NCBI GenBank assembly: GCA_015521085.1
Contig: WAOW01000008.1
Location: 1 to 64,000, forward strand
Source of the DNA: Candidatus Thermodiscus eudorianus
Lineage (GTDB): Archaea; Thermoproteota; Thermoprotei_A; Sulfolobales; Acidilobaceae
Direction: 5' to 3'
DNA length: 64,000 nt
The position numbers and the translations under genes are program-made. The notes under the pieces were generated by a model. It did no database searches. It saw nothing but the letters and a program-made list of their open reading frames with translations, and was not told where the DNA came from. Shown here piece after piece: positions 4,611-50,282 of the stretch (within the stretch, counting starts at the first letter, position 1; each line of letters starts with the position of its first letter).

Positions 4611-5627
4611 CTACTGCCCTTTGAGCCACCCCTCCAAGTAGCCCTTGGCTAGTGGATAGTGGCACGCGACCCGTCTCCCTGACTCCACCTCCCTCAACGG
4701 TGGCTCCTCAACCCTGCACTTCTCCTCGGCGAAAGGGCATCTCGTGTGGAACCTACAGCCGGGGGGCACATTCCTCGGGTCGGCGATCTCGCCCTTTATC
4801 TCAAGCCTCTTCTTCCTCCTCAGCCTTATGCTAGGCGCTGCCGTGGCGAGGGCCATTGTGTATGGGTGCCGGGGGTCCCTCAGCACCTCGTCGGCCTCGC
4901 CGTACTCGACTATCTTGCCCAGGTACATGACTGCGATCTTGTCCGAGATGATCCTGGCCACGGATAGGTCGTGTGTTATGAAGATCATGGCGAGCCCATA
5001 CTCCTCCTGGAAGCTCTTTAGCAGTTCCAGGATAGAGGCCCTCATAGACACGTCTATCATCGAGACCGGTTCATCGGCAACCACGAACTCGGGCTTAAGG
5101 ATCATGGCCCTAGCGATGACAGCCCTCTGCCTCTGCCCTCCGCTCAGCTGGCTGGGGATTCTCTCGTAGAAGTCCTCCGCTGGGGTAAGCCCCACCCTCT
5201 CCAACATGGCCATGGCCCTGTCGCGGGCCTCCTCTCTAGTGGCGAGCCCATGGACCAGTAGGGGCTCTGCAATCGCCTCTCCCACGGGTTTACGCGGGTT
5301 CAGGCTCGCATAGGGGTCCTGGTATATCATTTGCATCCTAGTCCTGTAGGGCCTGAGCTCCCTCCTCGACATGTGGGTTATGTCGACGCCGTCAAACACT
5401 ATCCTACCCTCATCGGGCTCCAATAGCCTCAAAACGAGCCTCCCAGTAGTAGTCTTTCCACAGCCTGACTCTCCGACGAGGGAAAGGGTCTCACCCCTAT
5501 CCACCGTAAAGCTAACGCCGTCGACGGCCTTCACAACGTGTCTCTCTCCGGCTAGGAAGCCGCCGCCCTGGACGAAGTACTTCTTCAGGCCCTCGACTAC
5601 AAGCAGGGGCTCACCCAACCCGCTCAC
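4611..5627 (-). CDS. dppF: Peptide ABC transporter ATPase (DppF/OppF type)
   Basis: Second ATPase of a dipeptide/oligopeptide importer, on the cytoplasmic face of the permease pair. The 338-aa protein has Walker [10 protein letters not shown] at 52-60, a Q-loop near 103, signature LSGGQRQR at 161-168, Walker B FVVADEP at 181-187 and an ITHD switch near 218. A C-terminal oligo_HPY-type extension with the [11 protein letters not shown] motif is typical of Dpp/Opp ATPases. It is the last gene of the operon and overlaps dppD by 4 bp, implying translational coupling. Substrate specificity (peptide, or sugar as in some hyperthermophile Opp systems) cannot be read from the ATPase. Confidence 0.95.
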
Positions 5628-12964: not shown

Positions 12965-14131
12965 TCACCACCTCGCCCTACCACTGAAGGAGTCTGGATC
13001 CAGCCTCGCGGCACCAGCCTCGATGTACTCGGGATCGCCCTCGAAGCCCGTCAAAACGTAGATGGTCCTGGCCCTATAGTTAACCCTGGTCACGAGGCCT
13101 GGGAAACCGAGGTCCCCGCGCCAGAGGCTGACCAGTAGCCCCCTCTCCCACCCGCTCCTCACAAAGACGACGCCAGGCTGGGGCCTGGCCCTGCCCCTCA
13201 CGACAAGCCGGACCCCGCCGCCAGCCTTCTCAGCGTAATACACGGTGGAGCCTAGCATCTCGGAGAAGGGCCTGGGGTCAAGGGGCTCGCCCGCGAATAG
13301 GGGAGCCCCGTAGAGGGGCACACGGTCCAGGCTGTAACTCCTCTCCCTAGCCCCTGCTAGCGCCTTGGCGATCAGCCTCTCCCTATGAATCCTCCTCTCC
13401 TCCCTGCTCTTGGAGCCCCGGTAGGGCGGGGGTATCGAGGAGACCTCGACGCTGGCGAGCCTCCTGCGTAGAAACTCGACATACCTCTCCTCCAGTCCAA
13501 CAGCTACAACCCGGTCCACACCGGCCGCCTCCGCGACTGCCACCTTTGACTCCAACCCCTCCCAGGGAGACACCCACCCGTCGGTATCGAATACTACTGG
13601 CGAGGTCCAGCCCTTCAAGATGTTACTAGAGCACCCGATGTACCTGTGTACGGCGTCCCTCGGGGTGAACGATCCCACGAAACATACCCTATAGAGCCTC
13701 CCGCCGGATCCAGGTATGAAGGGTCCCTCCACTACACTACTACTAGTGAAGCCCGGGCAGTAGTTCTCGTTCTGCCCTATATCGACGGTGGCATAAAGCA
13801 CCCTGCCGCCAGCGCTGGCGAGCTTGTTGGCTATCCAAGACGCGAGGGTGCTCTTACCACTATCACTAGGCCCGACCAGCAAGATCCTGCCCGGCACTGC
13901 CAGGCTAGAGGCAAGCCTATCCCAATCATCATAAACCCCCGGGTCGACGGCCTCCCACCTACCAGTATAGCTGGCCCTAGACCCCTCCCGGAAGCGGGCT
14001 AGCACGCCGCGTCCAACGGGGACAACGATGGAATCACCCGCCGACACGGGGTAGCCCAGTACCTCCCCCTCTCCCTCCTCAACCCTAAGCATCCCGGGCC
14101 CGCGTAGTAGGTAGACCCCGCGTCCAAGCAA
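12965..14131 (-). CDS. Clp1/Grc3-family polynucleotide 5'-hydroxyl kinase
   Basis: Predicted RNA 5'-kinase (388 aa) of the Clp1/Grc3 family, which phosphorylates 5'-OH ends of RNA such as those left by tRNA-splicing endonuclease. A beta-rich N-terminal domain (1-75) precedes the P-loop GPSDSGKST at 87-95. DIGQNENYCPGF (about 117-128) matches the family motif after the P-loop, and DTDGWV lies near 189. The C-terminal domain is beta-rich. The start is TTG at 14131; an ATG at 14092 is possible and would sit better behind a TATA-like GTAATAAGG near 14134-14142. The neighbouring tRNA with an intron fits the RNA-processing role, although this may be chance. Confidence 0.88.
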   Translation of the reverse strand: MLGRGVYLLRGPGMLRVEEGEGEVLGYPVSAGDSIVVPVGRGVLARFREGSRASYTGRWEAVDPGVYDDWDRLASSLAVPGRILLVGPSDSGKSTLASWIANKLASAGGRVLYATVDIGQNENYCPGFTSSSVVEGPFIPGSGGRLYRVCFVGSFTPRDAVHRYIGCSSNILKGWTSPVVFDTDGWVSPWEGLESKVAVAEAAGVDRVVAVGLEERYVEFLRRRLASVEVSSIPPPYRGSKSREERRIHRERLIAKALAGARERSYSLDRVPLYGAPLFAGEPLDPRPFSEMLGSTVYYAEKAGGGVRLVVRGRARPQPGVVFVRSGWERGLLVSLWRGDLGFPGLVTRVNYRARTIYVLTGFEGDPEYIEAGAARLDPDSFSGRARW

Positions 14132-14262
14132 TCCTTATTACCCTCCAGCCCCTAACACCCGGAATACCGGCCGGGCGCCGCGGTAGTATAGCCTGGCCTA
14201 GTATGCGGGCCTGTCAAGGGGCCCGCCTCCGCCCCACCCCCGGGATCCTCGCAGGATAAAAT

Positions 14263-14273
14263 GAGGGACCCTC
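14263..14273. repeat. Dispersed palindrome GAGGGWCCCTC (9 copies in window)
   Basis: An 11-bp interrupted palindrome occurs at 14263-14273, 17660-17670, 18079-18089, 18612-18622, 20405-20415, 23525-23535, 47700-47710, 55968-55978 and 58114-58124. Six of nine lie within 9.3 kb. Copies are in coding sequence in several reading frames and on both strands, in the tRNA-Asp insert and in an intergenic gap (18079). Many more 9-bp partial matches (GGGWCCCTC) exist. A rough estimate from base composition expects well under one copy. Role unknown. Confidence 0.7.
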
Positions 14274-14339
14274 GCCTATCCTCTAGGGCGCGTCTCCGAG
14301 GGGGCTCTTAGCCGGGTGGATGTGGGCGAGATACGCGTA

Positions 14340-14352
14340 AAACCTTATAAGG
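14340..14352 (+). promoter_or_regulatory. TATA-like element inside tRNA-Asp insert
   Basis: AAACCTTATAAGG is centred at about 14347. It matches the TCTTATAA core of the tRNA-Glu promoter (41069-41076) at 7 of 8 positions. A start 26 nt downstream would fall near 14373, just before the 3' strand of the 14-bp clamp (14380) and the 3' exon (14404). That is the layout expected for an independently transcribed 3' tRNA half. Function is inference. Confidence 0.4.
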
Positions 14353-14453
14353 AGCGGTGGAGGTCTTGCTTGTAGACCGGGGGCGGAGGCGGGAGCTACA
14401 GAAAGCCCGTGACCCGGGTTCAAATCCCGGCCGCGGCGCCATCCTCCGGCAAA

Positions 14454-50003: not shown

Positions 50004-50129
50004 TGGTCCGGCCGCGGGGAATCGAACCCCGGACCACCCGGTTTCTGCAAGAGCCCCCTCGCGCGGGGGCTCCCGCACGCCGCCCGTGTCTCACTACAGC
50101 CGGGCGCTCTACCGCTGAGCTACGGCCGG
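50004..50129 (-). tRNA. tRNA-Tyr (GTA) with 51-nt intron
   Basis: Minus strand. Acceptor CCGGCCG/CGGCCGG with C1-G72, typical of archaeal tRNA-Tyr, D arm TAGCTCAGC, anticodon stem CCCGG/CCGGG, anticodon GTA, discriminator A, encoded CCA at 50004-50006. The intron is 50043-50093, between positions 37 and 38. CTGT pairs with GCAG as the 4-bp helix between 3-nt bulges AGT and AAA. Inside it GAGCCCCC/GGGGGCTC forms a strong hairpin. Confidence 0.93.
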
Positions 50130-50177
50130 TCCGAGTCCATCAATTGTCCCGGGGAGGGTATAAGGCTTTTCCCTCGT

Positions 50178-50282
50178 TGGAGCCGGGGCCGGGATTCGAA
50201 CCCGGGAACGAACGGGTATCTACGATGGGCTGCGGCCGGCTCCACTGCAGCCCGCCGCCTTAGACCGCTCGGCCACCCCGGC
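50178..50282 (-). tRNA. tRNA-Cys (GCA) with 27-nt intron
   Basis: Minus strand. Acceptor GCCGGGG/CCCCGGC, anticodon stem GCGGG/CCCGT, anticodon GCA, discriminator U, the universal Cys identity base, and encoded CCA at 50178-50180. The intron is 50218-50244, at 37/38, with CTGC pairing with GTAG and bulges AGT and ATA. On first sight it looks like a class II tRNA because the intron sits where a long arm might; the fit to Cys is better. Confidence 0.9.

What the first reader, a model, noticed from the sequence alone, without database searches (positions are those of the whole stretch)
14177..14441. tRNA-Asp gene that looks halfway between an intron-bearing and a split tRNA
Seen: exons 14177-14216 and 14404-14441 join at 37/38 through a canonical bulge-helix-bulge. 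The 187-nt insert begins and ends with a perfect 14-bp GC-rich helix (14222-14235 with 14380-14393). A TATA-like CCTTATAA (about 14343-14350) lies where it would start a transcript near 14373, just before the 3' clamp strand and 3' exon; it matches the tRNA-Glu promoter core. Established: split tRNAs of Nanoarchaeum and some crenarchaea are transcribed as halves joined by GC-rich complementary leaders at 37/38. Inference: the 3' half may have its own promoter, so this could be a cis-adjacent split tRNA or a step toward one.
Basis: partly seen in the sequence, partly recalled or inferred. Interest (0 to 1): 0.8.

Follow-up and report, generated by a model that had tools for sequence, protein, structure and literature searches.

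The report
Split tRNA-Asp gene, halves still adjacent
In a heat-loving archaeon an essential tRNA gene appears to be read as two separate pieces that are joined afterwards, as already shown in Aeropyrum pernix; relatives carry a selfish DNA-cutting gene at exactly the same spot, which suggests how such split genes arise.

Summary
Observation confirmed: single-copy tRNA-Asp(GUC), exons 14177-14216 and 14404-14441, 187-nt insert, bulge-helix-bulge at 37/38, perfect 14-bp GC clamp, TATA-like element at 14341-14354. The clamp-plus-promoter form occurs in seven genomes of three genera in the same family; the best promoter-like site always starts 58-72 nt before the 3' exon although the rest of the insert is mostly unalignable between lineages. 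New here: three other genomes carry, at the same tRNA-Asp site between GC-rich clamps, a LAGLIDADG-type homing-endonuclease ORF, and one of them has a near-identical neighbour (flanks 95-97%) with a clean empty site. Carriers are patchy on an EF-2 tree. Three genomes (one of them the known T. aggregans) have inverted halves, and two have separated halves (about 33 kb apart in one). I infer that a mobile endonuclease intron seeded these split genes, the 'mobile element' Chan et al. postulated. Separate transcription in the window species itself is unproven; read-through with cis-splicing may coexist.

The parts
14131..14144 (+). promoter-like element (BRE/TATA) of the 5' half, ATCCTTATTACCCT
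   Evidence: order-level matrix 9.0 bits, 46 nt before the gene
14177..14216 (+). 5' half exon of tRNA-Asp(GUC), positions 1-37
   Evidence: sequence, conserved in relatives
14211..14217 (+). 5' side of the bulge-helix-bulge: CUGU helix strand and CA|A bulge, cut after 14216
   Evidence: MFE fold
14217..14403 (+). 187-nt insert between the halves
14222..14235 (+). 5' strand of the 14-bp GC clamp (trailer of the 5' half)
14341..14354 (+). internal promoter-like element (BRE/TATA), AACCTTATAAGGAG, 63 nt before the 3' exon
   Evidence: same position in six relatives with HEG-less long inserts
14373..14379 (+). expected transcription start of the 3' half (inferred from spacing, not mapped)
   Evidence: inference from the TATA position and from A. 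pernix
14380..14393 (+). 3' strand of the 14-bp GC clamp (leader of the 3' half)
14398..14404 (+). 3' side of the bulge-helix-bulge: ACAG helix strand and AA|A bulge, cut after 14403
   Evidence: MFE fold
14404..14441 (+). 3' half exon of tRNA-Asp, positions 38 to encoded CCA
   Evidence: sequence, conserved in relatives

Best explanation
This is a cis-adjacent split tRNA-Asp(GUC) gene, homologous to the proven one of Aeropyrum pernix. The 5' half is transcribed from the upstream promoter and ends somewhere in the insert. The 3' half is transcribed from the internal BRE/TATA at about 14341-14354, starting near 14373-14379, just before its GC-rich leader. The two 14-nt clamp strands pair in trans and rebuild the bulge-helix-bulge; the splicing endonuclease cuts both bulges and the ligase joins 37 to 38. 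Read-through precursor can also be spliced in cis. Shown here: anatomy, conservation, and a promoter-like element at a fixed place. Shown elsewhere, for A. pernix: separate half transcripts. Inferred: that this species does the same, and that the insert descends from a mobile homing-endonuclease intron that targets tRNA-Asp 37/38 in this order.
For: Exons and clamp match A. pernix tRNA-Asp (G016:C1:372080, the coordinate in Table 1 of Chan et al.), where Northern blots show two half transcripts and no 199-nt precursor. Seven genomes in three genera have clamp plus internal TATA; the best promoter-like site starts 63, 72, 63, 58, 58, 60 and 61 nt before the 3' exon although inserts are 118-187 nt long and mostly unalignable between lineages. 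Inverted and far-split tRNA-Asp genes have their 3'-half TATA at a similar place: 55 nt in three genomes, 59 nt in G090. G003 and G004, same genus, have a T6 run between the halves, as expected of an archaeal terminator. Clamp pairing is kept through two double changes in G018. No C/D box or Rfam family explains the long insert. Mobile origin: LAGLIDADG-type ORF at the same site in three genomes, with the occupied/empty pair G017/G074; carriers are not a clade (p-AU 0.0005).
Against: No RNA evidence for this species. The internal site is weak by the genome's own tRNA-promoter matrix, and scores in G003-G005 are within shuffle range, so the case rests on position more than on strength. The window insert has no T-run to end the 5' half. 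Full-length precursor has been detected in A. pernix. HEG-less inserts contain no detectable endonuclease remnant.
Confidence: 0.74

Rival explanations
1. Ordinary cis-spliced tRNA gene with an unusually long BHB intron; the TATA-like stretch is chance and the long GC helix merely stabilises the splice site.
For: A single precursor folds into a proper BHB; many relatives have short cis introns at this site; unspliced full-length RNA was detected in A. pernix; the internal site is weak by the own-genome matrix and the insert has no T-run.
Against: Fixed TATA position in seven genomes with otherwise unalignable inserts; two half transcripts and no precursor on Northern blots of the A. pernix homologue; other introns in this order are 14-55 nt.
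Confidence: 0.17
2. Long insert kept because it encodes a small RNA (for instance a C/D box guide) or another product.
For: Some archaeal tRNA-Trp introns carry C/D guides (stated); the insert is long.
Against: No C or D box in the window insert, no Rfam family, no ORF conserved between genomes, middle not conserved.
Confidence: 0.04
3. Split gene without a mobile-element past: inserts were inherited from one ancestor of the family and lost precisely many times, or splitting arose independently by local rearrangement.
For: No endonuclease remnant in HEG-less inserts; the endonuclease is rare, 3 of 214 genomes.
Against: Endonuclease ORF at the identical site in three families; precise occupied/empty pair with 95-97% flanks; carriers scattered and not a clade; near-identical clamps in non-sister lineages.
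Confidence: 0.35

Closest known systems
Aeropyrum pernix split tRNA-Asp(GUC) (Chan, Cozen and Lowe 2011, PMC3218864)
   Same: Same tRNA, same 37/38 junction, BHB, 14-bp GC clamp of identical core sequence, internal promoter at nearly the same distance, same family.
   Different: Insert 187 instead of 121 nt with an unalignable middle; different genus; no expression data.
Thermosphaera aggregans split tRNA-Asp(GUC) (same paper; G099 here)
   Same: Same tRNA and junction, adjacent halves, promoter-like site before the 3' leader.
   Different: Halves on opposite strands and convergent; different clamp sequence (CACGCCCTTCTCC).
Nanoarchaeum equitans and Caldivirga maquilingensis split tRNAs
   Same: Halves with complementary GC-rich leaders and a BHB at the junction (as described in PMC3218864).
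   Different: Halves at distant loci, several tRNAs per genome, no adjacent stage.
Homing-endonuclease-bearing archaeal BHB introns of rRNA genes
   Same: BHB-spliced insert with a LAGLIDADG ORF and patchy presence; this is the probable source type, seen at this tRNA site in G017, G087 and G129.
   Different: Host gene is a tRNA; in the window the ORF is absent and a promoter-like element is present instead.

Membership tests
Split (trans-spliced) tRNA, cis-adjacent type of A. pernix | Two tRNA halves that join at 37/38 through a canonical BHB | tested here: met
Split (trans-spliced) tRNA, cis-adjacent type of A. pernix | GC-rich complementary trailer and leader beyond the BHB | tested here: met
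   perfect 14 bp
Split (trans-spliced) tRNA, cis-adjacent type of A. pernix | Own promoter for the 3' half, spaced so that the leader covers the clamp | tested here: inconclusive
   promoter-like site at the right place in the window and six relatives, but weak by the own-genome matrix
Split (trans-spliced) tRNA, cis-adjacent type of A. pernix | Separate 5'- and 3'-half transcripts in RNA | not testable with these tools
   no RNA data; shown for A. pernix only
Split (trans-spliced) tRNA, cis-adjacent type of A. pernix | No other intact copy of this tRNA in the genome | tested here: met
   only tRNA-Asp among 43 tRNA genes; assembly about 95% complete
Ordinary cis-spliced BHB tRNA intron | Single precursor transcript covering both exons is the source of the tRNA | not testable with these tools
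   in A. pernix not seen on Northern, seen by RT-PCR
Homing-endonuclease mobile intron (three relatives, not the window) | LAGLIDADG-type ORF in the insert | tested here: met
   G017 and G087 intact, G129 frameshifted; Pfam LAGLIDADG_3 E 3.5e-4 and 7.5e-4, just under the curated cut-off; BLASTP E 4e-8 of the G087 protein to a two-motif LAGLIDADG protein
Homing-endonuclease mobile intron (three relatives, not the window) | Precise empty site in a close relative | tested here: met
   G017 against G074: flanks 97.4 and 95.2% identical, 567 nt exactly absent
Homing-endonuclease mobile intron (the window insert itself) | LAGLIDADG ORF or a recognisable remnant | tested here: not met
   no ORF; profile search no better than shuffles

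The most novel reading that the evidence does not exclude
Split tRNA-Asp genes in this archaeal order arise from a mobile LAGLIDADG-type BHB intron that homes to tRNA-Asp 37/38. Its clamp becomes the leader pair, and the AT-rich codons near the end of the endonuclease gene (I-E-x-F-I/L, for example GAAAACTTTATAAAAG) become the promoter of the 3' half. Loss of the endonuclease then leaves either a short intron or a cis-adjacent split gene (this window, Aeropyrum), which may later invert or scatter.
Probability: 0.4. Interest if true: 0.87.

Novelty: new member of a known kind. Interest (0 to 1): 0.66.

Why it matters
Whether split tRNAs are ancient or recent, and what splits them, is a long-standing question. 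Chan et al. [quoted passage not shown] The window adds a homologue with the A. pernix arrangement, and the comparison supplies a candidate element: an endonuclease ORF at that exact position in three genera, with a clean occupied/empty pair. One tRNA of one order then shows a graded series (empty site, short intron, endonuclease intron, adjacent split, inverted split, distant split) that can be tested directly.

Tried and rejected
A genome-contig scan with the neighbouring Clp1-like protein found nothing; a pattern for clamp plus exon worked. The sigma-70-type scan is uninformative for archaea. C/D box and Rfam readings were rejected. Search for endonuclease remnants in HEG-less inserts was negative; an LEKFIKKM-stop frame in G018 is suggestive only, 7 of 60 shuffles scoring as well. 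The AlphaFold model of the ORF (pLDDT 78, two sequences) gave no significant PDB match, so the LAGLIDADG label rests on sequence. NCBIfam gave nothing useful and PHROGs only a weak hit of unknown function. The endonuclease was not found in viral contigs or plasmids. Alignment A2 contains a row I made up as a placeholder and was not used; A3 replaced it. The chance that the best promoter-like site of an endonuclease insert falls 58-72 nt before the exon is about 0.03 each, but the three ORFs are homologous, so these are not three independent tests.

Full report
OBSERVATION. tRNA-Asp(GUC) is interrupted between 37 and 38 by 187 nt. The MFE fold forms the helix-bulge-helix-bulge-helix junction followed by the 14-bp clamp. 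Default tRNA and Rfam scans miss the gene. It is the only tRNA-Asp among 43 tRNA genes found in the 1.52-Mb assembly, so it should be essential.

RELATIVES AND THE KNOWN CASE. A search of 60 relatives found exons plus clamp without an ORF in six further genomes: G003 and G004 (same genus), G005 and G018, G016 and G024. They reported a strong promoter inside the 121-nt 'intron', a 14-bp clamp, both half transcripts and mature tRNA on Northern blots, and no 199-nt precursor; a full-length product was seen only by RT-PCR. A 2015 paper stresses that cis-splicing could therefore also occur (PMC4307357). The window locus is homologous to that gene and shares its clamp sequence.

PROMOTER. A 14-column BRE/TATA matrix was learned from 112 upstream regions of tRNA-Asp genes in the order, test loci excluded. 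In every HEG-less long insert the best-scoring position starts 58-72 nt before the 3' exon: window 63, G003 72, G004 63, A. pernix 58, G024 58, G005 60, G018 61. In the window it is AACCTTATAAGGAG, 14341-14354, 10.2 bits, matched by none of 300 shuffles, against 9.0 for the 5' promoter. Scores in G003-G005 are not unusual for their composition, and the own-genome matrix gives a weak score, so position is the stronger evidence. Promoter elements of ordinary tRNA-Asp genes start about 40 nt before the gene; the extra 18-25 nt fits a leader that carries the clamp. G003 and G004 have a T6 run between the halves; the window does not.

CLAMP. Predicted trailer/leader duplexes have 13-26 pairs in all 15 loci checked, separated halves included. 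Within the family four distinct clamp sequences keep 94% of cells paired, with two double changes in G018; sliding the partner gives 44-70% and no double change. With only four distinct rows this is modest support.

SURVEY OF THE ORDER. 144 of 214 genomes match the 5' half. Of roughly 120 loci read, most have no insert, many have 14-55 nt introns, and ten have long inserts: the seven above and three with an ORF. Two genomes (G090, G091) have the 3' half elsewhere. In G090 it lies about 33 kb away on the opposite strand, with a complementary leader and ACATTTATAAGG 59 nt before the exon. G091 has a similar TATA in that place, but it is not its top-scoring site. Some of the 144 matching loci were not read.

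HOMING ENDONUCLEASE. G017 (567 nt), G087 (448 nt) and G129 (451 nt) carry an ORF between GC-rich clamps at exactly this site. The G017 and G087 proteins are 51% identical; the G129 ORF is frameshifted. They match Pfam LAGLIDADG_3 just below the curated cut-off, and the G087 protein aligns with a two-motif LAGLIDADG protein at E 4e-8. Close homologues occur in 3 of 214 genomes of the order, all in tRNA-Asp; wider searches added only weak LAGLIDADG relatives. G017 and its near neighbour G074 have flanks 97.4 and 95.2% identical, with the 567 nt precisely absent from G074. On an EF-2 tree carriers are scattered: Aeropyrum beside intronless G032, G005/G018 beside intronless G011, G017 beside intronless G074; forcing the carriers into one clade is rejected (p-AU 0.0005). 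Shared clamps in non-sister lineages plus an occupied/empty pair are what a mobile intron leaves, though repeated precise loss from one ancestor is not excluded.

LINK BETWEEN THE TWO. Chan et al. wrote that the A. pernix and T. [quoted passage not shown] The endonuclease family found here is a candidate. In all three ORFs the codons for I-E-x-F-I/L near the C-terminus (GAAAACTTTATAAAAG, GAAAACTTTTTAAGAT, GAAACATTTATAAGCG) hold the top-scoring promoter-like position by the order matrix, 60-66 nt before the 3' exon, the same place as in the split loci. This suggests that the promoter was taken over from coding sequence. Against it: AT-rich codons resemble TATA boxes anyway, the three ORFs are not independent, shuffles of these AT-rich inserts often score as well, and no endonuclease remnant is detectable in HEG-less inserts. 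I hold this as a hypothesis. My literature searches found no report of a homing endonuclease in an archaeal tRNA intron, but the library lacks most subscription journals.

VERDICT. The window gene is very probably a cis-adjacent split tRNA-Asp, a new member of a kind described in 2011. The special interest lies in the comparative series and in the endonuclease at the same site.

Noticed in passing
L034:5655-6221 (G017); L041 reverse strand, about 4903-5350 (G087); L051 (G129): LAGLIDADG-type endonuclease ORFs inside tRNA-Asp at 37/38; in G017 and G087 the frame runs through the 3' clamp strand and stops at a TGA inside the 3' exon.
   Followed up: yes
L103/L200 (G090) and L104/L207 (G091): Far-split tRNA-Asp, not in the papers I read: 5' half with trailer AGCGCTAAGCCGCCGTCC and 3' half with leader GGACGGCGGTAAGGCGCGC, about 33 kb apart on opposite strands in G090.
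   Followed up: partly
L113 (G100), L114 (G101): Two further genomes of the T. aggregans genus with convergent, opposite-strand tRNA-Asp halves.
   Followed up: partly
window 12965-14131 (-): Clp1-family P-loop protein (probable RNA kinase, Pfam CLP1_P), divergent from the split tRNA; its predicted start lies 45 nt from the tRNA and touches the 5'-half promoter element.
   Followed up: partly
window 50007-50282 (-): Neighbouring tRNA-Tyr and tRNA-Cys genes with ordinary introns of about 51 and 27 nt.
   Followed up: no
L097 (G082), L100 (G086), L152 (G160): Short tRNA-Asp introns whose clamps (ATCCCTCCCC, CGTCCCTCCC, AGTCCCTCC) resemble that of the G087 endonuclease intron, as if the ORF had been deleted from such an intron.
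   Followed up: no
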